From: a virus
Virus record (IMG/VR): IMGVR_UViG_3300025874_000045
Span: 1-32,308 of that record
Length of the DNA: 32,308 nucleotides
Direction: 5' to 3' (one strand)
This document shows, in pieces, positions 10,623 to 32,251 of the stretch. The position numbers were made by a program, and so were the translations under genes. Under the pieces are notes generated by a model. The model was not told the origin of the DNA, did not search any database, and saw only the letters and a program-made list of their open reading frames with translations. The first letter of the stretch is position 1, and every line of letters begins with the position of its first letter.

Positions 10623-13600
10623 TTATCTCGAGTAAGCGGAGTTGCTTCTAAATAGTGCCGCTGTCATTTGATTGGTTTGTTTAATTTCGTTCAACAAGCT
10701 CTTCATAACAGAAACCATTTCGTTTGTTCCGCTAGAGGACCCAGAACGAAGCAACCCATCTAGCTTGCTCTCTATTCTTTCTATCATTCCCTTGCGATTA
10801 ACCGTAACCGATTCCTGACCATTAACCCCTATGGAGTACATCTGGTCCGAGGAAGAACTTATTATACCACTAGGGAGCACCGTTTCGCTACCACTAAGTG
10901 CGCTAGAGAATACCCCTAGGCTCGGGATGTTCAAGGAGTTGGTTGTTATACCCATGCCCTGAGTAGTTACCCCGAGTCTCCTTAGCTGCTCTAAGTAATC
11001 ACCTACCGCGGACCTTCCCTGTTCAGATATTGTCCTTGATAGATCCCCGAAGCGATCTGCAATACCCCCAACGGTTAGTTCTCCTATCTCTCCTATCGCC
11101 CCCATTGTGCTCTCGAAGGAAGTGATACCGTCATCGTTAAAATCAAAAAGCTTTTGCAGGTTCTCATCGCTCGCAGTAGAGAAGTTGTTCGTCCATTGAT
11201 CAATGGAAACACCCGATTGCTCTACGAAATACTTCGCATCCTCTAGAGCTATACCGTAGTGCTCACTGATAGACTGGAAGAGTGCATCCGTAGAAGCCAT
11301 GCCATTCTCTGATAACTCATCAAAGCGTGCGTCTATTAAACCTAGGCTGTCCCTTGCATCGAAATAAGATTGACCAAAACCTGTAGAGAAGTTCTCAAAG
11401 AAAAGGTTGCTCGGTTTAACCAAACCGTTCTGAACGGCTGTCTCAAACACCTCTCCATAGCTAACAGCCTCATCCAATCCGTCACGATAGGTCTGCCAAA
11501 CTTCCATTATGTCTTCGACAGTCTTGTCTTTATCCAAGACGCGCAGAGTACCGAAATCGGAGTTCAGGCTCTCGAAGCCCGCAGCTCTTAATGCTTCCTC
11601 GAAACCATCCAGTGAGCTCTGCGCCCCAGTGAAGAAGCCGCCATTACCGTTGGCCCCCCCATTCGCTAGGAATTGGGCATTTAGACCAGATCCTCGTACA
11701 CCAAAATCGGAACCGAACACACCTGTGTTGTTACCCGCCGCGGAACCCTTCTGGACCCCGAACAAATCAGGCAAATAATCCTCTTGGAGAATTTGATCGT
11801 AGTCTCGCGCTCCACCCATACCCGCTAGAGTGAGTACAGCCATTGCCGCCCAACCTGCTGGTCCCATAGCACCGAGTACAGCAGAAGCTCCACCTGTTAG
11901 AGCGGCAGTTCCCGCATATGCTCCGATAGCACCAGCACCGAATGTGGCCGCTCCACGCGCTCCACCCTGCTCGATGCCTGAATACATTCCGTATAATCCG
12001 CCAGCAACACCAGCGACAGCTCCCGCAGTACCTAATGCGCTTAGACCGTTACCAGTTTGTGATGCTCCTTGCTGGGCGGCGAGCTGAGAGGCATCAATTC
12101 CCATACCTGCAGTGCTCATGTTCGGAGGAACATACCCTGAGAAGTTTGTGTATTGTCCGAGGCTCTGAGCATAAGGAGTTGCTGCTAAATTAAGGCCGCT
12201 CGCGGTTGATCCGTAGCTTGCGGCCAACGCACCCGATAGACCTGTAGCCCCGTTAACACCGTAACTCGCGGATAAGGCTGTTCCCAGCTGTGATGCGCCT
12301 CCCCACCACCCAGCCGTTTGCCCCACTCCATAAAGCTGCGCAGCGTTCATAGCAGCCGAGCCGTAGCCCATCACGCCGCCCTGCTTAATACCGTTGTATA
12401 TTCCGAAAGCGTTGCCCGCGGCACCAAGGTATGTTCCCGCCATACCCGTATATTCTTGACCGCCTGTGAATTTCTGGTAAGCGTTATACGCGCCAAGCCC
12501 TGCGCCGCCCATCTGGACCGCACCAGAAACCTTATTGCCTCCCGTTATCTGCTGGTACCCCGCATAGAGACCAAAGGCTGCTGCCGCTCCTCCTAATACC
12601 GCGCCCGTTTGTTGCTCACTCAGACCAATATAAGAACCAAAGTCCTTCGCTAATCCTCCGAGTGAGTTGTTTCCTGTACCGCTATTTCCGCCTAGGTTGA
12701 AGCCTCCTGTGTTACCGCCAGCGTTGTTCCCCCCGAAACCGCTATTGTTAAAGTAGTTTCCTATACTGAAACCACTAAAGTCTAGGGTGCCTCCGTTGAA
12801 GAACGAGCGAAGTAATTGAATTAAACCAGAGGCTAAGAAATCCTTAACCATCCTCTTCCAGAGGTCCTTAAAGAAATCCTCTACGCTCTCACCATCAACG
12901 ATCGTGTCTATCAGTCCCTTGCTGAAACCTTCGATAGCAGAGTTGAGTTTTTCGATACCCTCTCTCTGGGCAATGAACTCCGCTTGCTGAGCTACTAGTG
13001 CAGGGTACTTCGTCTCTAGTTCCGCGATACTAATGCCGTACTTATCAGCAACGTCCTTAAGAGTCTTGTAAACCTCCGCTGCAACAGCTCCCTCACTAGC
13101 GGATATTCTTTGTATTTTTAGCTGGTTCTGCTGGTCTATGTTAAGCTCTTTCAGAGCCTTCCCCGCGAGCTCCGTAGCCGCTCCGCTGGAGCGCATTGCT
13201 CCCTCAACCTGAGCCTGTGTTAAGCGTAGAGCCTTGAGTGCTTTCTCATACTGAGCGACGTCGATCTCTCCCGACTTATACTTACCGCTTAGCTCCTCTA
13301 CAGCCTTCTCTACATCCTCAGTGGCTCCAGTGTGCTTAGCGAGTTCTGTGCGCAGCGCCTTTAACTTAACACTATAAACACTTACTTCCTTACCAGAAGC
13401 TTTGTGAGCTGCGTCGAGTAAAGCAATCTCTTTTCGAAGATCGGCTTCCTTTTTCTCCAGCTCCTCTGTTACAGAGAGCTCTACCTTTTTCTTCTTAGAG
13501 CTCTGATCTATTTTCTTGTTGAGCTCCTCTATATCGTTGGCGAGTGCCTTCTTGCCGTCCGCCCCGATCTTATCCATCGCGACAGAATCTTTCTGGAGCG

Positions 13601-15518
13601 CGAGTAACCCTTCTCGTTGAGTACGGAGCTTCGCTATCTCACCCGCTTCCGCGATGTAGAGGGACACTAGTTCCTCTGTTGACGCAGTGTCCCCCTCACT
13701 CGCTTTACGCTTCCGTTCCTGCACAGCTGAGAGATTTTCATAGGCTGCTAAAACAGCATCCGAAGCAATCTTTAGGTCCTTACTGGCTTTTAGCTCCCCG
13801 TAAATAGCGTGGTTGTTCTCGAAGCGGGCTTCTGTTTCGGCAAGTTTTTTCTCCGCAAGTTGTGCCGTTGCTATCGCTTCTTGGACCGCCGCCTCCGCTC
13901 CCGCCTCCGTTTGAAGGATCGCTGCTGCGACAAGCTTCTCCTTCTCGGTCAGCAACTTCAGCTCCTGTAAAGAAGCCTCCGATTGGAGATCGTCTAGCTC
14001 GATGCGCTTGATTCTGTTCTGAATCAGTTCCTGCTCTTGGAGCAGTGTCTGGTAGCTTTGCTCGGTCAGCGCTTTCTCAGCGGCGGCGAGTTTATTTAAC
14101 GACTCTGTGGTGAGGTCTATGTTGTCTACCCCATCACCAAAAACATCAAACATGTACGCCGCCTGTACCGCGAGCATAACAAGTCCTAGTGGTCCACCTA
14201 GGAACGCCATTACCCCCTTAAGGCGTGTCATCGCAGCGCTAACGAAACCAGTGGTTGCTGCTAGTGTTCGGTTAGTTGCCGCCTGCGCTGCTTGTGCCGC
14301 AGTGAGCGCTCCCGTAGCGGCTGTTAGAGAGGCTCTGTTAGCGGTCGCCTGCTTCTCTAAAACGGTTAGTCGAGCTGTTTGGGTAGCTACCGCAGCTTCT
14401 GTCTTAGCCCTTGTTAGGTTAACCTCGATCTGACGTATCTTTACCGCCAGTGATTCGCCTTCGGCAACTAGGCTCGCCCTTACAGCAGCGGTTCTTCGAA
14501 CCATCGTGGCTTGCTCCGCCACCATCGCTTTCTGGTTCTCTAGTGTTGCTGCTTTCTGTGCTCTGGTAGCCGCAATATTGGAGGCGATACTTTTCCCCCA
14601 ACTATCCATAGTCTTAGCGACCTTTATTGAAACCAGCCCGATAAAAGCCTGCCCCAAAAGATCCGCGTTTTCCGTCAGAGCACCTATAATAGACACAACC
14701 TTATCGGTAGCCCCGTACTCCTTATTGATGCTTTGGATGCCTGTGATAACAACGTTCTGTGCGCGTTGTAAAGCATCGCCAACCGTAACAGGGATCTGCT
14801 CGAACTGTCTGCGGATCTCTGGAGCGGATTTGGCGAGAGCTGACATTATCAGCTCGGTGGTTAGCTTACCCTCGATAGACATAGCACGGAGCTCTGCCTG
14901 TGTCTTGTTGGCACCCTTAGCGATCGCGTCCATAAGACCAACCGCGTTCTCAGATAGAGAACGGAATTCGTCGCCGCGAAGCAAACCAGATGAAAGCGCT
15001 TGGCTTAACTGGAGAAGGGAAGAAGAGGTTTCTTTGGCGGAGGCACCACCAATTTTTAGAGACTTGGACACAAGCTCTGTGATTTCCGAGAGCTGCAATG
15101 AGCCCGTCGTGACGTCCCCTAATCGTTGCTTTAAGCGAACGTAAAAGGAGGTAGTGGCCTCGATCGAGGCGCGAGAATCTTGGGAGACAGCGAGTAGCTC
15201 TCTCTGAGTTGCGACCAGATCAGCGTTACCGCTGGAGACTAGTCTTAAACGACCCTCTAATAGGGTCATTGAATCGGCGGCACGTATAGCCTCTCTTGCT
15301 AAGAGACCAATGGAGATACCCCCAAACGCTTTAGCAAAAGCGCTGGAGGCATTCGTACCCACCTGCATCGAACGATTATATCTATCTAAGGACTTTTGCC
15401 CCTTTCTAGATGATTCGTCAAGCCTTTTGATTGCTGCGGTAGATCCATCTGCCGCTCGCACCATACTTGCGTTTTCCCCCGTTAATCGAAGGAGGTGCTC
15501 GTATACTGTTCTACTCAT
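10623..15518 (-). CDS. Tape measure protein (gpH-like)
   Basis: A 1631-residue protein that sets tail length and is ejected with the DNA. The N-terminal domain (about 60-260) is of the tape_meas_nterm type: LLAREAIRAADSMTLLEGRL, SQDSRASIEATTSFYVRL, ALSSGLLRGDEFRSLSENA. A hydrophobic patch near 435 (AFLGGPLGLVMLAVQAAYMF) is followed by long coiled-coil helices (470-880), a Gly/Asn-rich linker (near 930-970), a Gly/Ala-rich hydrophobic tract of tandem-like units (GAYNAYQ, GIYNGI, GLYGMYSGIEQGG) and a C-terminal region with DFNDDGITSFES, similar to a calcium-binding loop. By the usual ratio of about 1.5 angstrom per residue the tail should be roughly 240 nm, well above lambda's. The ATG overlaps the end of the T frame. 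Confidence 0.93.
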   Translation of the reverse strand: MSRTVYEHLLRLTGENASMVRAADGSTAAIKRLDESSRKGQKSLDRYNRSMQVGTNASSAFAKAFGGISIGLLAREAIRAADSMTLLEGRLRLVSSGNADLVATQRELLAVSQDSRASIEATTSFYVRLKQRLGDVTTGSLQLSEITELVSKSLKIGGASAKETSSSLLQLSQALSSGLLRGDEFRSLSENAVGLMDAIAKGANKTQAELRAMSIEGKLTTELIMSALAKSAPEIRRQFEQIPVTVGDALQRAQNVVITGIQSINKEYGATDKVVSIIGALTENADLLGQAFIGLVSIKVAKTMDSWGKSIASNIAATRAQKAATLENQKAMVAEQATMVRRTAAVRASLVAEGESLAVKIRQIEVNLTRAKTEAAVATQTARLTVLEKQATANRASLTAATGALTAAQAAQAATNRTLAATTGFVSAAMTRLKGVMAFLGGPLGLVMLAVQAAYMFDVFGDGVDNIDLTTESLNKLAAAEKALTEQSYQTLLQEQELIQNRIKRIELDDLQSEASLQELKLLTEKEKLVAAAILQTEAGAEAAVQEAIATAQLAEKKLAETEARFENNHAIYGELKASKDLKIASDAVLAAYENLSAVQERKRKASEGDTASTEELVSLYIAEAGEIAKLRTQREGLLALQKDSVAMDKIGADGKKALANDIEELNKKIDQSSKKKKVELSVTEELEKKEADLRKEIALLDAAHKASGKEVSVYSVKLKALRTELAKHTGATEDVEKAVEELSGKYKSGEIDVAQYEKALKALRLTQAQVEGAMRSSGAATELAGKALKELNIDQQNQLKIQRISASEGAVAAEVYKTLKDVADKYGISIAELETKYPALVAQQAEFIAQREGIEKLNSAIEGFSKGLIDTIVDGESVEDFFKDLWKRMVKDFLASGLIQLLRSFFNGGTLDFSGFSIGNYFNNSGFGGNNAGGNTGGFNLGGNSGTGNNSLGGLAKDFGSYIGLSEQQTGAVLGGAAAAFGLYAGYQQITGGNKVSGAVQMGGAGLGAYNAYQKFTGGQEYTGMAGTYLGAAGNAFGIYNGIKQGGVMGYGSAAMNAAQLYGVGQTAGWWGGASQLGTALSASYGVNGATGLSGALAASYGSTASGLNLAATPYAQSLGQYTNFSGYVPPNMSTAGMGIDASQLAAQQGASQTGNGLSALGTAGAVAGVAGGLYGMYSGIEQGGARGAATFGAGAIGAYAGTAALTGGASAVLGAMGPAGWAAMAVLTLAGMGGARDYDQILQEDYLPDLFGVQKGSAAGNNTGVFGSDFGVRGSGLNAQFLANGGANGNGGFFTGAQSSLDGFEEALRAAGFESLNSDFGTLRVLDKDKTVEDIMEVWQTYRDGLDEAVSYGEVFETAVQNGLVKPSNLFFENFSTGFGQSYFDARDSLGLIDARFDELSENGMASTDALFQSISEHYGIALEDAKYFVEQSGVSIDQWTNNFSTASDENLQKLFDFNDDGITSFESTMGAIGEIGELTVGGIADRFGDLSRTISEQGRSAVGDYLEQLRRLGVTTQGMGITTNSLNIPSLGVFSSALSGSETVLPSGIISSSSDQMYSIGVNGQESVTVNRKGMIERIESKLDGLLRSGSSSGTNEMVSVMKSLLNEIKQTNQMTAALFRSNSAYSR

Positions 15519-21597: not shown

Positions 21598-23112
21598 TTA
21601 TTTCTCCTCGTCCTCTTCGGCGGGTTCTTTCTCCTCTACAAGGAGATCGTTCTCGCTCATCAATTGTTTTTTACGAGTGGCGTGAGCTATGTTAGCCTCG
21701 AGTACTTTCGAAGAATCGCAATTAAGCTTTCGAGCTTCTTTCTCGTGAGTACTTAGGTCCGCCCCTATTCTTGCTACAGCTGCCTGAGCATCCTGTAAAG
21801 GATGTACATAAGCCCAACCCTGCGGGCGCCAGTCTGTGGCTAGATATTCTTTTTTCTTGTTCGCGTAATCTGGAAGACTGATAGCTCCACTAAACACCGC
21901 CTCATCCAACCACCATTCAGCGATCTTCTCAAGAACCTGTTGTATTAAATAAATCTCTTGGACTGCCTCAATCTCTCTCTGGAAGTCATTAAGTATCGCT
22001 CTTAAAATACGATCATTAACGCTCTTCCAATCACCCGTAACGAGCTCATAAGGGACACCGAAAGATGCAGAGATAGCCATAAGCTGCTGTCTCATATAGT
22101 CCGCGTAGAACTCTCCTCCCGACTCACCATCAAATAGGTTCAGGTTCTCACCATCACCTAACTGGGTTATTGATCCCGCCTGAAAAGACACCGATGGTAA
22201 GGGCTCATCCCCCATATCAAATGGTATTCCTGTTAAAGGATCTATCTGTACTCCAGTCGCTGGGTCGTATCTCGCTTCGCGCTCAATGGTACCCGTGAAG
22301 GATGCTTTGTTTTTCTTGCGCTCCAACTCATAATCATCATACGCTTCGAGGTTAGAGTTCTTGAATATACCCGAAGAAAACACGGGTAACGCTCTAAGCT
22401 GACCTGCTCGCAAGGGTATGTAGTGATGGATAACATCCTTCGCTAATATCCTTACTCTCTGGGTACCCTCACTAGTGAAGGTACCAAATGTTCTGTCCGA
22501 GGGATGCTTCTTAAAGAAGTGGTAAGCTATCCTCTCGCCGCTAGTATTCATTTCTATACTAGATATAATCTGGTTGCCGTTATTAAGAGTTCTGTTGAAC
22601 GTTGGGTCCAACATGTCTGACTCAAGTAACTGGCACTGCATAGGAACAGCCATTCCTTTATAAGCGGGTCTTCTGCGACGTCTTATAAAGATCTCCCCTA
22701 CCTCATTTCTGCCCCGACTTATTAGTCTCTGTGCAGCGTACAAGTGCCCCACATGTTCCGCGAACATAGTAGGTATGCTTTCCTTCCACAAGCTGTTAAG
22801 CTCGTCCCGAAGGTTCTCGTCCTCATTCTCAAACGTACAAGTTATACCTGTGCCGATCTCGTGCTTAACTAGGGACCGTAATCCGTTGCTAATATAAGGA
22901 CCATTTCGAACCGCGTCTCTAGCTCTATCCTGAGATAGTCGAAGCTCAGGGCTAACCGCCGAGTTCGGGCCCGCTGGCTTGCCTGCCATTACTGCAGAGC
23001 GTGTTCCTCTACTAGCTGATACGTTATGCGTGCTACGAGAGTTCTGCTTGGGGGTCTCCTCAACAGCTGCTTCTGCAGAGCGTCCGAGAATATAATCCGC
23101 TATAACACCCAT
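21598..23112 (-). CDS. Portal protein (gpB, lambda family)
   Basis: A 504-residue portal protein, close to lambda gpB (533 aa). Typical segments: SPELRLSQDRARDAVRNGPYISNGLRSLVKHEIGTG early, RGRNEVGEIFIRRRRRP, QLLESDMLD, AKDVIHHYIPLRAGQLRALPVFSSG, MRQQLMAISASFGVPYELVTGDWKSVNDRILRA, and WRPQGWAYVHPLQDAQAA. It ends in an acidic tail (VEEKEPAEEDEE). It forms the dodecameric ring through which DNA enters and leaves. Three bases separate it from the gpW stop. Confidence 0.95.
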   Translation of the reverse strand: MGVIADYILGRSAEAAVEETPKQNSRSTHNVSASRGTRSAVMAGKPAGPNSAVSPELRLSQDRARDAVRNGPYISNGLRSLVKHEIGTGITCTFENEDENLRDELNSLWKESIPTMFAEHVGHLYAAQRLISRGRNEVGEIFIRRRRRPAYKGMAVPMQCQLLESDMLDPTFNRTLNNGNQIISSIEMNTSGERIAYHFFKKHPSDRTFGTFTSEGTQRVRILAKDVIHHYIPLRAGQLRALPVFSSGIFKNSNLEAYDDYELERKKNKASFTGTIEREARYDPATGVQIDPLTGIPFDMGDEPLPSVSFQAGSITQLGDGENLNLFDGESGGEFYADYMRQQLMAISASFGVPYELVTGDWKSVNDRILRAILNDFQREIEAVQEIYLIQQVLEKIAEWWLDEAVFSGAISLPDYANKKKEYLATDWRPQGWAYVHPLQDAQAAVARIGADLSTHEKEARKLNCDSSKVLEANIAHATRKKQLMSENDLLVEEKEPAEEDEEK

Positions 23113-23114
23113 CC

Positions 23115-23336
23115 TTATAACCCCGAGCTGATGTTAAGTCTAAAGGACTGCACGCGACTCTTAGATGGAGAATCCTTACTCTGTAGAGAAGCAATAATTC
23201 TCTGCTCAATACGAAGCATTTCATCCAGATCTCTATACTCTACATACCGATCCTGATGCTTTGACTTAAGTTCACCAGCAGCTATTGCCTCTTGGAGATA
23301 CCTTAAATCCGACTCAGTATAATTATCTACCTGCAT
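23115..23336 (-). CDS. Head-tail joining protein gpW
   Basis: A 73-residue protein between terminase and portal, where lambda W (68 aa) lies. The pattern matches gpW: YTESDLRYLQEAIAAGEL, then a DRYVEYRDLDEMLRIEQRIIASL beta-turn-helix part and a basic tail. Known role: binds under the portal after packaging to form the platform for the stopper. Its start lies 14 bases inside the large terminase gene. Confidence 0.85.
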   Translation of the reverse strand: MQVDNYTESDLRYLQEAIAAGELKSKHQDRYVEYRDLDEMLRIEQRIIASLQSKDSPSKSRVQSFRLNISSGL

Positions 23337-25392
23337 TATGTACCCTCCTATAAGGTCGCGCCTTCACACTTCGCCTAACTCCAGCGGAGACTACGTTACT
23401 GTTTTTTTCCATGTCCGCCGCCCATAAGGGAGGTCTGTTCCACGAAATACTATGTCCGCCGAGTTGGTGCCAAGCGGCTAGTGCATAAACGAATAAATCC
23501 AGTGACTCGTTTGCCTTGCCTCTTATCTGTACCCAACCCTTCGCTTCTCGAATCTCCGCGTTAAGCAGCTCTTCGTAGTGTCTGTCTTTGAAATACTTGG
23601 GGAACTGTACGAACCCCCAACCATCGAAATCTCTGTCCAACTGACCAGCAATGTCGTCCTTAAAACGATCCGTATTGATCATCAGAACTGGCACATCGCC
23701 CTTACTGGAAACGTTCCTCTGTCCAGTTTGCTTTCGGGAATCAGGCCAGCTTAGAATTACCTTGTCCTGATTCTCTTTAATATTCTTCTTAACGCTGTCC
23801 CCGCCCATACCTCTGACCAGAAAACACTTTCTTTTCAAGGACATAGGGAGCTTTCTGTACCAGCTAAGAGCGTTATCATAAACACCCGCTTCGCCGCCAC
23901 AATCCACAACTAGGAAGTGATTCATCAACTCCTTGCCGTCCTTAAGTTTATAAGTAGCGTTGATCTTTGCGTCTAGCAGGGACCAATCCTCTTCGTAAAC
24001 CGCGGGCTGTATTCTGTCCGTCTTGCCTTCTCGATCGGTCTCGGTCAGGGTGTACCTATCAAGGTACCACGCCCTGTTTTCTGTTCCCATCCCGAACATA
24101 CCAAACTCGAATCTAGATCCCTTACCACCCTGTACATCGACAGCTGTGATCAGGGTCCTAACTCCGTCTGGAACAGTGAACCTCTCTATATCCAAGGCAC
24201 GTTCCTTAAGCAGCGCGAAATCCGTAGATTGTGATCTTCTAGATTTCGGTACATAAGGGTGAACGAACTCTTGGTTGTAAACGTTCTTAAGCGAGTCTTC
24301 GTCGCCCGTTCTTTCGTACTGATCCTCTGCTCTGGCGTAGGTTAACCCTATGTCAAACCAGCTATTAAAACTTGCGAACCATCCAGCGCACCAGAAGCTT
24401 GCTCTCTTAGAGACTCTTCCTTCTCCGTGCTTAACACCCTCCGAATCAATCGTCTGCCCTTCCTTTAACCAAGTTCCTGTTAAACGAAAAGCCTTCTCTT
24501 GGTCACGGGTTATGTGTTCTCCGCACAACGCGCATATCAAAGCTATTCCTGCCGCACGCTCCTCTACTGATTCATGAGGGGGTAAGTACATCGACTCATC
24601 TGGATCAGGGCTCGGTCTAAAGTACTCCTCGCAATGAGGGCACTTAGCGTAAACCATTCTACGGTCTCCCGTATTGTACAAACCAAGGATACCCTTGGTT
24701 GGTGGTGCCTCGTGAGGTCTATCCTCGGAGGGCTTCCATGTAGGATCATCAACCTCCTTAGAAGGCGTGCTCTCTACTGCGCACATGGCTTTACTCATGT
24801 ACGTGGTCGTACGTTTCTGCATCTGATCGAAACCAGATCCTTCTCCGCCGATATCATCAGGCCACCGATCGTAATCGGTTCCTAGCATAAAGCCAATAGG
24901 CTTGCCCGCTAGCTGATTCTTACTGGGCCAACCAACGTTAAGTAGCTGCCCCGTCTTAAACTTCTTCCGCCATGTTGTATCTGCTGATCTACCAGCAAGT
25001 AACAGGCTCTTTAATTTGTCGGAGTTTGCAATCATCCGATCAAGGCGCCTTACAGAGAAATCCCCTGCGGAAGCCATATCTTTTTCAATGATCATCGCAT
25101 CCATTGGATCCGCTATGATCTTGTGTGCGGCTCCATTAAGGATCACCGATTGAGTCTTACCGTTCTGTACACCCGCCGCTAGAATCACGCTATCGTAAAA
25201 CCTAGAGGTCAAGGCGTCCGCTGGTTCCCTCATCAAGGGAGCTAGTCTAGAATTGTAATAACCTGTGTACGCCTCATCCTTAAGATAAACGTACTCTTCA
25301 GCACACTCTGTAACTGTTAATCTCTTCGGAGGACGTATTACGTCGACCGTTCTGGCTAGGGTTGCCCTAGCTGTGGCGAAGCTATTAATCAC
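23323..25392 (-). CDS. Terminase large subunit (GpA family)
   Basis: A 689-residue packaging motor and nuclease. The start GTG 25392 is preferred over the in-frame start at 25473: GGAGG lies nine bases before it and it overlaps the small-subunit stop by only eight bases. Counting from there: ATPase P-loop-like AAGVQNGKT (about 72-80), Walker B region MLGTDYDRWPDD (about 169-180), a zinc-ribbon pair CPHC (251-254) and CALC (287-290), and a C-terminal nuclease with acidic residues in TAVDVQGG (Asp419), LVVDCGGEAG (Asp497) and SLDLFVYALA. It cuts cos and drives DNA into the procapsid. Confidence 0.95.
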   Translation of the reverse strand: MINSFATARATLARTVDVIRPPKRLTVTECAEEYVYLKDEAYTGYYNSRLAPLMREPADALTSRFYDSVILAAGVQNGKTQSVILNGAAHKIIADPMDAMIIEKDMASAGDFSVRRLDRMIANSDKLKSLLLAGRSADTTWRKKFKTGQLLNVGWPSKNQLAGKPIGFMLGTDYDRWPDDIGGEGSGFDQMQKRTTTYMSKAMCAVESTPSKEVDDPTWKPSEDRPHEAPPTKGILGLYNTGDRRMVYAKCPHCEEYFRPSPDPDESMYLPPHESVEERAAGIALICALCGEHITRDQEKAFRLTGTWLKEGQTIDSEGVKHGEGRVSKRASFWCAGWFASFNSWFDIGLTYARAEDQYERTGDEDSLKNVYNQEFVHPYVPKSRRSQSTDFALLKERALDIERFTVPDGVRTLITAVDVQGGKGSRFEFGMFGMGTENRAWYLDRYTLTETDREGKTDRIQPAVYEEDWSLLDAKINATYKLKDGKELMNHFLVVDCGGEAGVYDNALSWYRKLPMSLKRKCFLVRGMGGDSVKKNIKENQDKVILSWPDSRKQTGQRNVSSKGDVPVLMINTDRFKDDIAGQLDRDFDGWGFVQFPKYFKDRHYEELLNAEIREAKGWVQIRGKANESLDLFVYALAAWHQLGGHSISWNRPPLWAADMEKNSNVVSAGVRRSVKARPYRRVHNAGR

Positions 25393-25900
25393 CCTGAACT
25401 TCCTCCGACACTTCCTCCCCATCGGGATCAAGGAAGTGCTGAAGGTTATGTGCCAAAGATTGTCTTGCGTCATCTACCGATGCAAGGAACACCTTTAACT
25501 GATCAGGCTGTAACCCAACCTCATGCTCTACTCTGTCTGGAAGCGTATCTAGTGCGAACACTAACATCTTAAATGCTTCCGCTACTACGTCCCGTACTTC
25601 TTCCGCGGGTATCAATTCCCCGCAATGCTTCTCGTACGCGAGGCGCTTGTTCTCTGCGTCGTACCAATCCTTACGGTCCTTAGGATCCATCTTATCTGGA
25701 TCATTCTCTATTCCCCCAGCGTCTGCTCCCTTGACCTTCCAAGAGGGCATAACGGATAGTGCTATAGCGACTGTCTTAAACGAGTACTCTTCCCGCTTCG
25801 CAGACTTTTTGTCTGGAGCGTATCCTACAAGATACTTGATTAATGTTCGTCTATCTACTCCAGTTAGCTGGGCTAACCTGTTGACCGAAAAAGTTTCCAT
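25385..25900 (-). CDS. Terminase small subunit (Nu1-like)
   Basis: A 171-residue protein, near lambda Nu1 (181 aa). The N-terminus is a winged helix-turn-helix (FSVNRLAQLTGVDRRTLIKYL) that in lambda binds the R sites of cosB. The middle reads DRKDWYDAENKRLAYEKHCGELIPAEEVRDVV, the typical Nu1 helical segment, and the C-terminus is helical and acidic for contact with the large subunit. The RBS is weak. Two 28-bp direct repeats about 460 bases upstream are candidate binding sites. Confidence 0.9.
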   Translation of the reverse strand: METFSVNRLAQLTGVDRRTLIKYLVGYAPDKKSAKREEYSFKTVAIALSVMPSWKVKGADAGGIENDPDKMDPKDRKDWYDAENKRLAYEKHCGELIPAEEVRDVVAEAFKMLVFALDTLPDRVEHEVGLQPDQLKVFLASVDDARQSLAHNLQHFLDPDGEEVSEEVQGD

Positions 25901-26629: not shown

Positions 26630-26677
26630 TCATAGAACCATATTAGAGCACGGTTTGTTACTCGATGCAAGTGATTG

Positions 26678-26705
26678 ATTATAAAAGGTTTATGTTTTTG
26701 TACAA
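26678..26705 (-). promoter_or_regulatory. Candidate late promoter (minus strand)
   Basis: TTGTAC (minus, 26705-26700), a 16-base spacer and a consensus TATAAT (26683-26678). The -35 box is weak (3 of 6), as often seen where an activator or antiterminator acts. It is the only clear promoter between the 27-29 kb cassette terminator and the terminase genes. Confidence 0.5.
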
Positions 26706-26945
26706 TTTATTTCTAGGTCCATGGCGGACCGCGGGTTCTCGGGAACTGGCGTGCCTGCTGATTTCTAGGTGGGCTGTAAATCCTTGATTCATAAGGGCTT
26801 TTGAGGTGGTACCATGAGAGCGCCAAAAATATTGAGAGATCGAGCTCAATCTGCGCCCACGATCGAAAAAAAAATTTCAGGGTCCCTCTACTTGACACAT
26901 GTCCATTATTTCTTTTTTGCCAGTTCGCGGCCCGTTTTGGTCCAA
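26706..26945. other. Non-coding gap, nothing recognised
   Basis: No frame here has a credible start. The sequence is GC-rich near 26720-26770 and contains an A9 run near 26867. No tRNA fold is seen. A plus-strand TTGACA at 26893 lacks a fitting -10 box. Confidence 0.4.
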
Positions 26946-29063: not shown

Positions 29064-29100
29064 TTTGTTTTACCTTTTAAGTTAGTTAGTTAGTTAGTTA
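29064..29100 (-). promoter_or_regulatory. Repeated RBS leader, copy 3, with a TAAC tandem tract
   Basis: TTAAAAGGTAAAACAAA (29080-29064 on the minus strand) is preceded by five tandem copies of TAAC (29100-29081). The tetranucleotide tract lies in the 5' untranslated region. Confidence 0.6.
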
Positions 29101-29110
29101 AGATATAAAC

Positions 29111-29393: not shown

Positions 29394-29493
29394 CACAGAT
29401 ACAAGTTGCACTTTGCCCCCACCGAAGTTGCACTTTCGTTGCCGCGGCGCCACAGATACAAGTTGCACTCTGTGTTCGGATCGAAGTTGCACT
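29394..29493. repeat. Iteron-like repeats of AGTTGCACT (four copies)
   Basis: AGTTGCACT at 29404, 29426, 29461 and 29485, all in one orientation. They form a two-unit compound repeat: CACAGATACAAGTTGCACT at 29394 and 29451, and GAAGTTGCACTTT at 29424 and 29483. The units look like a tandem duplication of about 57-59 bases. Candidate binding sites for a replication initiator or a regulator. Confidence 0.7.
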
Positions 29494-29505
29494 TTATTGT
29501 GGGCC

Positions 29506-30619: not shown

Positions 30620-31237
30620 TTAGATTCCTTCTTTTGATTCTTTCGGATACATCCTCTCAGCAGCACTCATCTTTTTAGCGGCCTTTTTCTTCTGCCAAGT
30701 TTTGTAGGGCAGGTCGTTTCCTTCCTGATAAACCCTAGCGTAGAGCATGAGCATCTGCAGGTTGCATATTACGTGCGCCCAGTGAGGTTGCCCACTATCC
30801 TCATCATTCTTGTAAGGATCATCCTTCATCTTCAGAAGGTGTCTCGCGGCACAACCAAACGGAACGCTCCACGGCATCCCCTTCGCCCAGTTCCAAGCTT
30901 TGTATTTTCGTTTACCGAACTCCCAAACGTGCGCTACCGAGTCGTACCCAGAGTATTCAGATATTGTTAGGTTTGATTTTGCTGCGAGCTGGAGCATTAT
31001 TTTGTCTCCGAGTACTCTAATGAACTCAATATCTCCAGTGAGCTGAAAGTCCGATAGGTTCCTCCAACACTCGCGGAGCACAGGATCCTTGAACTGGGGC
31101 CCGCCCATATCCTTGAGTATGATCAACGAGTAGTCTGGTTTACCAGAGTTGTATCTGGCTCCAGTACCGATATCATCCGAATCGATATCCCCAACACAGT
31201 TCTCTTTGTTCCAAGCTTCTGCTGTCTCTGAATCCAT
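30620..31237 (-). CDS. DUF5664 family dATP/dGTP pyrophosphohydrolase (MazZ-like)
   Basis: A 205-residue protein with the DUF5664 pattern: GARYNSGKPDYSLI (about 26-39), VAHVWEFGKRKYKAWNWAKG (about 101-120), CAARHLLKM (about 129-137), then DEDSGQPHWAHVICNLQML (about 146-164). The paired acidic and His residues of the last two motifs are the expected metal site of an all-alpha NTP pyrophosphohydrolase. Some members (MazZ) remove the pyrophosphate from dGTP/dATP in phages whose DNA contains 2-aminoadenine; most members are in ordinary phages. No PurZ or DatZ gene lies in this window. It is the first gene of the leftward operon. Confidence 0.75.
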   Translation of the reverse strand: MDSETAEAWNKENCVGDIDSDDIGTGARYNSGKPDYSLIILKDMGGPQFKDPVLRECWRNLSDFQLTGDIEFIRVLGDKIMLQLAAKSNLTISEYSGYDSVAHVWEFGKRKYKAWNWAKGMPWSVPFGCAARHLLKMKDDPYKNDEDSGQPHWAHVICNLQMLMLYARVYQEGNDLPYKTWQKKKAAKKMSAAERMYPKESKEGI

Positions 31238-31316
31238 AACTAGTGCCTTTATGTTTTGAAGGAGAGTAGTTTACAACATTACTCTGCCCGCGGCAACCAA
31301 AACCTTCTCTGATCCC

Positions 31317-31689
31317 AGAGTACAAAACTCGTTTTTCAAAAAAACCTTTTGAAATCAATGACTTACGTAAGAATTACCTCTCAAAGTACACAAAGTACAA
31401 AAGTACAGGAAGTTTTGTACTCGTTTTGTACTCTCTTTTTCCCTTTAAAATCAAGGACTTACGAGCGCAAAACCGCCAGAGTACAAAACTTTTCGAAAAA
31501 AGCCCAAAAAAGTTTAAATTCTAGATTCTGTTTATAGAACCCTATAACCCTTATTATATATTTCTAAAGTTTAAAAGTAGTAATAGAAGTGTACTCTATG
31601 TCCTCGTTCCCCTAACCCCTTGATTTTAAAGGGTTTTTCGAGAGTACAAGAAGAGTACAAAAGTACACGAAAGTTTTGTACTCTTGTAC
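31317..31689. repeat. Array of GTAC-centred repeats in the divergent intergenic region
   Basis: GTAC occurs 13 times between 31320 and 31689 (31320, 31386, 31395, 31403, 31417, 31428, 31481, 31591, 31644, 31655, 31663, 31678, 31686), mostly as GAGTACAAAA or its complement TTTTGTACTC. About one or two would be expected by chance. Two clusters (31386-31431 and 31644-31689) have the same internal layout. The rest of 31238-31996 holds no gene; CTCGGACCAA is repeated at 31780 and 31857. Confidence 0.8.
31412..31663. repeat. Long imperfect inverted repeat (arms about 45 bp)
   Basis: The arm 31412-31456 (TTTTGTACTC, TTTTGTACTCTC, then CCCTTTAAAATCAAGG) is the near-exact reverse complement of 31618-31663. 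The inner 16 bases match perfectly (31441-31456 with 31618-31633). The arms enclose about 160 AT-rich bases. Confidence 0.75.
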
Positions 31690-31922
31690 TCTAATGGACA
31701 AATGTCAGCTAAAACCCCTCACAAACATAAACTCGTTGTAATAAACCATACACATGTCCAGTAGCCAAGAATCAAGGACCTCGGACCAAAACTCAAAAAA
31801 GGAGCTCCGATTTCCAAAAAACTTGTCCCAAGCACCCCGCAGCCAGTCATAAGAAACTCGGACCAAGAACCACTTTTTTACCAAAAAGAACCAAGAACCC
31901 TGAAATAATAGTAAAACAGTTC

Positions 31923-31950
31923 TTTACTTAAAGTAAGCTTCGTGTATACT
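31923..31950 (+). promoter_or_regulatory. Rightward promoter with operator-like dyad
   Basis: TTTACT (31923-31928), 16-base spacer, TATACT (31945-31950). The -35 box is part of TTACTTAAAGTAA, an inverted repeat of 6-bp arms with one base between. The gene start follows 46 bases after the -10 box. Confidence 0.65.
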
Positions 31951-31996
31951 GTACCCCCAGTCGAGATTCATTGAACCAACCAGAACGGAGAAACAA

Positions 31997-32251
31997 ATGA
32001 AGAGATTGACCAGCCACAGAATCAACACTGCTATAAAGGAAGTAACGGGTGTTGATGCTAAGGTATTTCTAGAGCCGAACGTGAGCGCACATTTCTACAG
32101 TGACGACGAGCGCACCTCGGAGATCTTATCTAGGACCGATACGGGTGTTATGGTAGCTCGTTACTCCCACCTAACTCTAGAGCAGTGGGTTGATAGCTTT
32201 AAACTAATCTGGAACAACGCACAGAACGTGTTAAAAGGAGAATCAGAATGA
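31997..32251 (+). CDS. Hypothetical protein, first gene of the rightward operon (84 aa)
   Basis: An 84-residue acidic alpha/beta protein: LTSHRINTAIKEVTGVDAKVFL, SAHFYSDDERTSEIL, TGVMVARYSHLTLEQWVDSF, KLIWNNAQNVL. Small proteins of this kind are frequent in early phage operons. There is no helix-turn-helix, so it is not an obvious Cro-like regulator. Its ATG has CGGAGAAACAA upstream and its TGA overlaps the next ATG. Confidence 0.75.
   Translation: MKRLTSHRINTAIKEVTGVDAKVFLEPNVSAHFYSDDERTSEILSRTDTGVMVARYSHLTLEQWVDSFKLIWNNAQNVLKGESE

What the first reader, a model, noticed from the sequence alone, without database searches (positions are those of the whole stretch)
31317..31690. Thirteen GTAC-centred repeats in a long inverted repeat between divergent operons
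GAGTACAAAA/TTTTGTACTC words are crowded into 370 bases, far above chance, in two mirror-image clusters whose inner arms include a perfect 16-bp match (CCCTTTAAAATCAAGG). The layout suggests a large multi-operator switch, a cruciform-capable origin, or a centromere/partition-like site. A third, degraded copy begins at 31317, followed by a related GAAATCAATGACTTACG sequence.
Basis: seen in the sequence. Interest (0 to 1): 0.75.

Follow-up and report, generated by a model that had tools for sequence, protein, structure and literature searches.

The report
Likely phage DNA replication start site
Between the two opposing gene blocks of an uncultured tailed phage sits a mirror-image cluster of short repeats framed by binding sites for the host's DNA-bending protein IHF, which looks like the site where the phage starts copying its DNA; the mirror layout is kept in a distant relative although the repeat word itself has changed.

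Summary
In detail: 13 GTAC-centred repeats in 374 bp (at most 6 in any window to the left), two mirror-image clusters and a perfect 16-bp inner arm match. The window is the late-gene half of a siphophage. A 53-kb near-twin carries the repeat word only here, and the array is 99.5% identical while flanking ORFs are 92.7%. A 59-kb relative (TerL 76%) has the same geometry at the same late/early junction (iteron-IHF 21/21 bp, IHF-IHF 164/166 bp, AT-rich centre), but its repeat word has changed. The phage encodes an NrS-1-type primase-polymerase/SF3 helicase with a predicted C-terminal winged helix, polymerase A, and no detected integrase, repressor or ParAB. Iterons plus IHF-type sites also lie just upstream of related primase-helicase genes in many viral contigs (44 of 77; 4.5 expected). 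Best reading: a replication origin, with iterons bound by a phage initiator, IHF bending and an AT-rich unwinding element, possibly also controlling early promoters. A multi-operator switch remains open. A separate cos-like site at about 26.7 kb argues against packaging. Function and the binding protein are inferred, not shown.

The parts
31317..31691 (.). whole iteron/IHF array (candidate replication origin) between the leftward late operon and the rightward early operon
   Evidence: 13 GTAC iterons, 3 IHF-consensus sites; 2 differences in 375 b to near-twin G001 against 120 in 1649 b of flanking ORFs
31318..31368 (+). outer unit: iteron GAGTACAAAA (31318) and IHF-consensus site AATCAATGACTTA (31353-31365)
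31384..31434 (.). left iteron cluster, GTAC at 31386, 31395, 31403, 31417, 31428
31441..31461 (+). inner left IHF-type site CCCTTTAAAATCAAGGACTTA (consensus core 31449-31461)
31478..31489 (+). single iteron on the inner side of the left IHF site (GTAC 31481, 53 bp from GTAC 31428, opposite orientation)
31500..31585 (.). AT-rich centre, candidate unwinding element (up to 78% AT in 60-bp windows, top 0.3% of near-twin genome windows; TTATATATTT and GCCCAAAAAAGTTT conserved in relative G003)
31588..31597 (-). single degenerate iteron on the inner side of the right IHF site (GTAC 31591, 53 bp from GTAC 31644)
31613..31633 (-). inner right IHF-type site, AATCAAGGGGTTA on the minus strand, mirror of 31441-31461
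31640..31691 (.). right iteron cluster, GTAC at 31644, 31655, 31663, 31678, 31686
31923..31950 (+). sigma70-like promoter TTTACT-16-TATACT of the rightward early operon, outside the array (one found, 1.1 expected by chance)
   Evidence: consensus match only
30620..31237 (-). first leftward gene: protein with dATP/dGTP diphosphohydrolase N-terminal domain (PF18909, phrog_801)
31997..32251 (+). first rightward (early) ORF, 84 aa, no family

Best explanation
It is most likely the replication origin of a siphophage that replicates with an NrS-1-type primase-polymerase/SF3 helicase. Shown: two mirrored iteron clusters, three exact IHF-consensus sites and a central AT-rich segment lie in fixed register at the late/early gene junction. 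Inferred: a phage initiator binds the iterons on both sides and host IHF bends the DNA, bringing the arms together; the AT-rich centre then melts and the primase-helicase loads, giving two divergent forks. The initiator may be the primase-helicase itself through its C-terminal winged helix, or a separate early DNA-binding protein. The same complex probably also tunes the divergent early and late promoters.
For: 1) Word confined to this site: all six exact GAGTACAAAA of the 53-kb near-twin G001 are here. 2) Array 99.5% identical to G001 while flanking ORFs are 92.7% and the adjoining right intergenic stretch 93.1%. 3) G003 (59 kb; TerL 76%, primase 79% identical) has the same layout at the same junction: inner GTAC to IHF 21/21 bp, next GTAC 32/33 bp further, IHF-IHF 164/166 bp, AT-rich centre; the iteron word has changed and there is a 29-bp perfect inverted repeat. 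4) AT-rich centre in the top 0.3% and 0.02% of genome windows; cumulative GC-skew minimum at the array in both genomes. 5) Phage replisome: Prim-Pol + DUF5906 SF3 helicase, DNA polymerase A, SNF2-like helicase; helicase matches NrS-1 primase-polymerase 6k9c/6k9e, E 2e-18; C-terminal domain modelled as a winged helix (helix-strand-helix-helix-strand-strand, block pLDDT mostly 78-90). 6) Independent recurrence: 44 of 77 viral contigs coding a related D5_N/DUF5906 primase-helicase have an IHF-consensus site within 700 b upstream (4.5 expected, 0 in coding control), 28 have iterons above shuffles; after clustering 14 of 32, against 0-5 for permuted patterns. L187, L204, L207 and L215 show iterons on both sides of a T/A-tract core with an IHF-type site beside them, in front of the gene. 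7) Precedents: plasmid iteron origins using IHF (pSC101, R6K; PMC5043065); P4 alpha, a primase-helicase whose winged helix binds origin repeats (PMC4234260).
Against: No experiment, no read coverage, no mapped start. In this phage the primase-helicase gene is about 13 kb from the array. GC skew and AT-richness are expected at any divergent promoter region. In the D5_N/DUF5906 set, sharing an iteron word did not go with extra similarity of the C-terminal winged helix (residual +0.01), so the primase-helicase is not shown to be the iteron binder. IHF-type element plus iterons also occur in contigs where DUF5906 was not found (17 of 20 contigs searched, many of them fragments), so the cassette is not specific to this replicase. 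The DUF5906 protein here and those of the 77 contigs are only distantly related. Closest structure matches of the winged helix are weak (E 0.04 in PDB, 0.016 among viral models).
Confidence: 0.6

Rival explanations
1. Multi-operator transcription switch: a phage regulator binds the GTAC iterons and IHF loops the DNA to control the divergent late and early promoters, without being an origin.
For: It sits exactly between divergent operons; operator words also turn over between phages; in L157-type relatives a near-perfect sigma70 promoter (TTGACA/TATAAT) abuts the IHF site; iteron/IHF arrays occur in contigs without a detected DUF5906 replicase.
Against: In the window the only promoter-like site lies 230 bp outside the array; Pfam finds no repressor-like or HTH regulator among 44 G001 ORFs, mostly early; a two-fold symmetric array around an AT-rich core and its position in front of primase-helicase genes in other phages are more origin-like.
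Confidence: 0.25
2. Packaging (cos) site: the iterons would be terminase small-subunit binding sites and the IHF sites the counterpart of lambda cosB I1.
For: The TerL belongs to the phage family phrog_15; Enc34 and Seifer, named relatives by TerL, have IHF-consensus sites about 59 bp from their annotated or shared cos end.
Against: A better cos candidate lies just upstream of the terminase genes at about 26.65-26.80 kb: CCGCGGGTTCTCGGGAACTGGCG, like Enc34 cos AGCCGCGTTCTCGGAAATTGCG, with IHF-consensus sites on both sides. In Enc34 and Seifer the iteron array is a separate element 200-500 bp from cos.
Confidence: 0.08
3. Partition/centromere site for plasmid-like prophage maintenance.
For: Clustered repeats with IHF recall P1 parS (from memory).
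Against: Pfam finds no ParA, ParB, integrase or repressor among 44 G001 ORFs, mostly from the early region; nothing points to lysogeny.
Confidence: 0.03
4. Repeat decay or expansion with no function.
For: Short repeats can arise by slippage.
Against: Array far more conserved than neighbouring genes; geometry kept across a large divergence; three exact IHF sites against 0.04 expected.
Confidence: 0.02

Closest known systems
Bacteriophage P4 alpha protein with its origin iterons (from memory and PMC4234260)
   Same: Primase fused to a helicase with a C-terminal winged helix; short repeats at the origin; phage context.
   Different: P4 alpha primase is Toprim-type, here Prim-Pol (AEP); P4 uses iterons at ori plus a distant crr (memory), here one mirrored array with IHF-type sites; binding not shown here.
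NrS-1 phage primase-polymerase (PMC7102993, PMC8718748)
   Same: The helicase domain of the phage protein matches it (6k9c, E 2e-18).
   Different: NrS-1 starts at an 8-nt template motif TTTGGTTA, two copies in its genome suggested as origin (PMC7102993); no iteron/IHF array is described in the passages read.
Iteron plasmid origins with IHF (pSC101, R6K gamma; PMC5043065)
   Same: Iterons, AT-rich unwinding region, an IHF requirement, initiator-specific repeat word.
   Different: There the iterons are mostly direct repeats and DnaA takes part; here they are mirrored on both sides, and DnaA boxes were not searched for.
Casjensviridae (Enc34, Seifer, AH2)
   Same: TerL about 37% identical; each has an iteron array near its primase gene.
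   Different: Different genome order; the Enc34 and Seifer arrays lie near cos; the window's phage is not placed in the family here.
pRN1-type AEP-SF3 replicons and phage BIP-1 (PMC4234260)
   Same: AEP primase + SF3 helicase + winged helix, origin suggested at a large inverted repeat.
   Different: Those authors found a stem-loop 3' of the replication gene and no iteron origin in BIP-1; here there are explicit iterons and IHF-type sites away from the gene.

Membership tests
Iteron-type replication origin | Multiple short specific repeats clustered at one place in the replicon | tested here: met
   13 GTAC iterons in 374 b; exact word only here in the 53-kb near-twin
Iteron-type replication origin | Adjacent AT-rich unwinding element | tested here: met
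   AT-rich centre in the top 0.3% (G001) and 0.02% (G003) of genome windows
Iteron-type replication origin | Binding site for a nucleoid protein (IHF) | tested here: met
   three exact WATCAANNNNTTR sites; binding itself not tested
Iteron-type replication origin | Cognate initiator that binds the iterons | tested here: inconclusive
   Primase-helicase with predicted C-terminal winged helix, but no coupling of C-terminus and iteron word in a related set
Iteron-type replication origin | Replication starts here / autonomous replication | not testable with these tools
   needs infected cells or a plasmid assay
IHF binding site | WATCAANNNNTTR core with A/T-rich 5' flank | tested here: met
   the sites of the related set share an extended form AATCAA[GT][GCA]ACTTA that is tighter than the textbook consensus
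cos / cosB site | Lies at the virion DNA ends, next to the terminase genes | tested here: not met
   array is 5 kb from the terminase genes; cos-like sequence with IHF sites at about 26.7 kb; virion ends themselves not known
parS/centromere | Cognate ParA/ParB encoded | tested here: not met
   none among 44 G001 ORFs by Pfam; late genes and short ORFs not covered
Operator array of a repressor | Operators overlap the promoters they control and a cognate regulator is encoded | tested here: inconclusive
   promoter-like site 230 bp outside the array; no regulator found by Pfam, but consensus promoter scans are weak evidence
Casjensviridae | Shared gene order and core proteins of the family | tested here: not met
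   TerL about 37% identical but replication genes lie in a different place

The most novel reading that the evidence does not exclude
A widespread origin module of bacterial phages: an extended IHF-type element (roughly CCTTTAWAATCAA[GT][GC]ACTTACG) at a near-fixed distance from iterons whose sequence is replaced from phage to phage while spacing, symmetry and AT-rich core stay. It would be used mainly by phages with AEP primase-SF3 helicases and would allow origins to be found in very many uncultured phages.
Probability: 0.35. Interest if true: 0.7.

Novelty: new variant of a known kind. Interest (0 to 1): 0.52.

Why it matters
Origins of phages that replicate with primase-polymerase/SF3 helicases are hardly known; a study of one such system found no iteron origin and proposed a stem-loop (PMC4234260). 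This array gives a compact, conserved and testable candidate, and the IHF-plus-iteron signature recurs in front of many related replicase genes, so origins could be predicted across uncultured phages. It also shows replacement of the recognition word under constant geometry, a good system for studying initiator-origin coevolution.

Tried and rejected
- cos site at the array: rejected after finding a cos-like sequence with IHF sites upstream of the terminase genes and separate cos and iteron arrays in Enc34 and Seifer. A direct search for the Enc34 cos core with up to 4 mismatches gave only chance-like hits, so the cos match was made by eye.
- Partition site and lysogeny switch: no ParAB, integrase or repressor by Pfam.
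- Prim-Pol C-terminus as the determinant of the iteron word: tested on 51 relatives with repeats, no signal.
- Full-length primase-helicase model from two sequences: useless (pLDDT 33); only the C-terminal domain modelled well. Structure searches gave winged-helix proteins but no match with E < 0.001.
- DNA similarity of the intergenic region to named phages or plasmids: only short pieces.
- G004, L165, L263: related contigs that do not contain the array, so the direct comparison rests on two lineages.
- A TerL search of bacterial genomes found nothing; the host is unknown.
- Simple repeats in G001 at 52.47 kb (TTAG)n and G003 at 56.8 kb: microsatellite-like, not a second iteron array.
- The literature library was searched by words only; no paper describing this array was found.

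Full report
WHAT IS THERE. The window is a 32,308-bp virus record. It holds leftward siphophage late genes: TerL 23323-25473 and portal 21598-23112, and a 1631-aa ORF 10623-15518 that by size and position should be the tape measure. At its right end an intergenic region (31238-31996) separates a leftward protein with a dATP/dGTP diphosphohydrolase N-terminal domain (30620-31237) from the first rightward ORF (31997-32251). In this gap 13 GTAC-centred repeats lie in 31317-31690; no other 374-bp window to the left has more than 6. GAGTACAAAA-like words occur 10 times in the window against 2.5 expected, 9 of them here. Two clusters are mirror images and the inner arms share a perfect 16-mer.

THE MISSED PART: IHF SITES. 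The inner-arm element and the 'GAAATCAATGACTTACG' of the outer unit match the IHF consensus WATCAANNNNTTR exactly, three times (31353 +, 31449 +, 31613 -), against 0.04 expected in a sequence of this composition. Both inner sites have their A/T-rich side towards the adjacent iteron cluster, and each is flanked by oppositely oriented iterons 53 bp apart (GTAC 31428/31481 and 31591/31644). Between them lies an AT-rich segment.

THE PHAGE. A near-twin, G001 (IMGVR_UViG_3300025637_000017, 53,098 bp), overlaps the window at both ends and shows the rest of the genome: a rightward early operon starting at the array and meeting the late genes head-on at about 24.2 kb. The early arm encodes a Prim-Pol + DUF5906 (SF3) protein, DNA polymerase A, a SNF2-like helicase and Pam3 gp33/gp34-like proteins. 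Of 44 G001 ORFs scanned with Pfam, mostly early, none is an integrase, repressor, ParA or ParB. The primase-helicase matches NrS-1 phage primase-polymerase (6k9c, E 2e-18). Its C-terminal 100 residues are modelled as a winged helix; structure searches return winged-helix proteins, though weakly.

CONSERVATION. All six exact GAGTACAAAA words of G001 lie in the array. Window and G001 differ at 2 of 375 positions in the array, but at 120 of 1649 in the flanking leftward ORFs and 21 of 305 in the right intergenic part; the short rightward ORF is also nearly identical (1 of 255). A more distant phage, G003 (IMGVR_UViG_3300002038_000009, 59,401 bp; TerL 76%, primase-helicase 79%), has an array at the same late/early junction. 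Its iteron word differs (CAGTACGTTTT, CAGTACACTTT), but the geometry is the same: inner GTAC to IHF 21 bp in both, then 32/33 bp to the next GTAC, IHF to IHF 164/166 bp, right IHF to GTAC 31/30 bp, and an AT-rich centre. One of the two G003 inner sites departs from the IHF core by one base (ATTTCAA for AATCAA). Both arrays fold back strongly as single strands (z -8.4 and -7.7), as expected of inverted repeats. Cumulative GC skew has its minimum at the array in both genomes when G001 is read as a circle, but divergent transcription alone could do that.

WIDER PATTERN. In L126, L155, L157 and L130 the next large gene is a D5_N/DUF5906 primase-helicase. As an independent test I collected related primase-helicase genes by protein: 44 of 77 have an IHF-consensus site in the 700 b upstream, against 4.5 expected from shuffles and 0 in a coding control; 28 have repeated 8-mers above shuffles. 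After clustering similar upstream regions, 14 of 32 representatives have the site, while ten permuted or respaced patterns give 0-5. Several (L187, L204, L207, L215) show iterons on both sides of a T/A-tract core with an IHF-type site beside them, right in front of the gene. Caveat: of 20 pattern-hit contigs searched, only 3 had DUF5906 (many are fragments), so the cassette is not tied to one replicase. The sites share an extended form, AATCAA[GT][GCA]ACTTA, tighter than the textbook IHF consensus; host IHF binding is inferred.

MECHANISM. Shown: parts, register, conservation, co-occurrence with replicase genes. Inferred: iterons bound by a phage initiator, IHF bending, melting of the AT-rich core, bidirectional start. 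Who binds the iterons is open. The winged helix of the primase-helicase is the natural candidate, because P4 alpha works that way (PMC4234260), but in the related set sharing an iteron word did not go with a more similar C-terminus.

RIVALS. A multi-operator switch fits the divergent position and remains possible. A cos site was considered because Enc34 and Seifer have IHF-consensus sites near their cos ends, but the window has a cos-like sequence with IHF sites at about 26.65-26.80 kb, just upstream of the terminase genes, and in Enc34 and Seifer iteron arrays are separate from cos. Partition lacks its proteins.

KNOWN OR NEW. Iteron origins that use IHF are known in plasmids (pSC101, R6K; PMC5043065). 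AEP-SF3 replicons have been suggested to start at large stem-loops (pRN1, BIP-1; PMC4234260). What I did not find described is a mirrored iteron array with embedded IHF-type sites, constant geometry and changing repeat word in phages of this type: a new variant of a known kind, pending experiment. The literature library is partial, so absence there is weak evidence.

Noticed in passing
window 26655-26800: CCGCGGGTTCTCGGGAACTGGCG resembles the cos region of Casjensviridae (Enc34), lies just upstream of the terminase genes and has IHF-consensus sites on both sides (26668 -, 26777 -): probable cos.
   Followed up: partly
window 29395-29500: Four copies of AAGTTGCACTTT-like repeats (GATACAAGTTGCACT, CGAAGTTGCACTTT) in a noncoding stretch.
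   Followed up: no
window 29075-29105; G001 52,470-52,535: (TTAG)n microsatellite, longer in G001, near the end of that contig.
   Followed up: partly
L051, L072, L093, L141: The IHF-type element ATCAAGGACTTACG follows directly on what looks like the CCA end of a tRNA gene in several viral contigs, perhaps part of attachment sites.
   Followed up: no
L046, L081, L145, L152: The same element lies just upstream of TGGCACG-N4-TT motifs that resemble sigma54 promoters.
   Followed up: no
L097, L117, L050 (TTGTCTTAT); L048, L067, L101 (TAACATT); L071 and others (GGTAACGTTACC): Other viral contigs with strong repeat arrays around the IHF-type element, next to terminase or AAA+ genes rather than DUF5906.
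   Followed up: partly
L256 49,535-49,905; L164 230-515; L257 235-500: Casjensviridae AH2, Enc34 and Seifer carry arrays of different repeat words (GGTCCGAA, TTTGTAATAAA, GGTTACAAG) near their primase genes: candidate origins not marked in the records.
   Followed up: partly
L254 3050-3550 (phage 9NA): AGCAGCAT-type word repeated about 24 times in 400 b overlapping gene 10.
   Followed up: no
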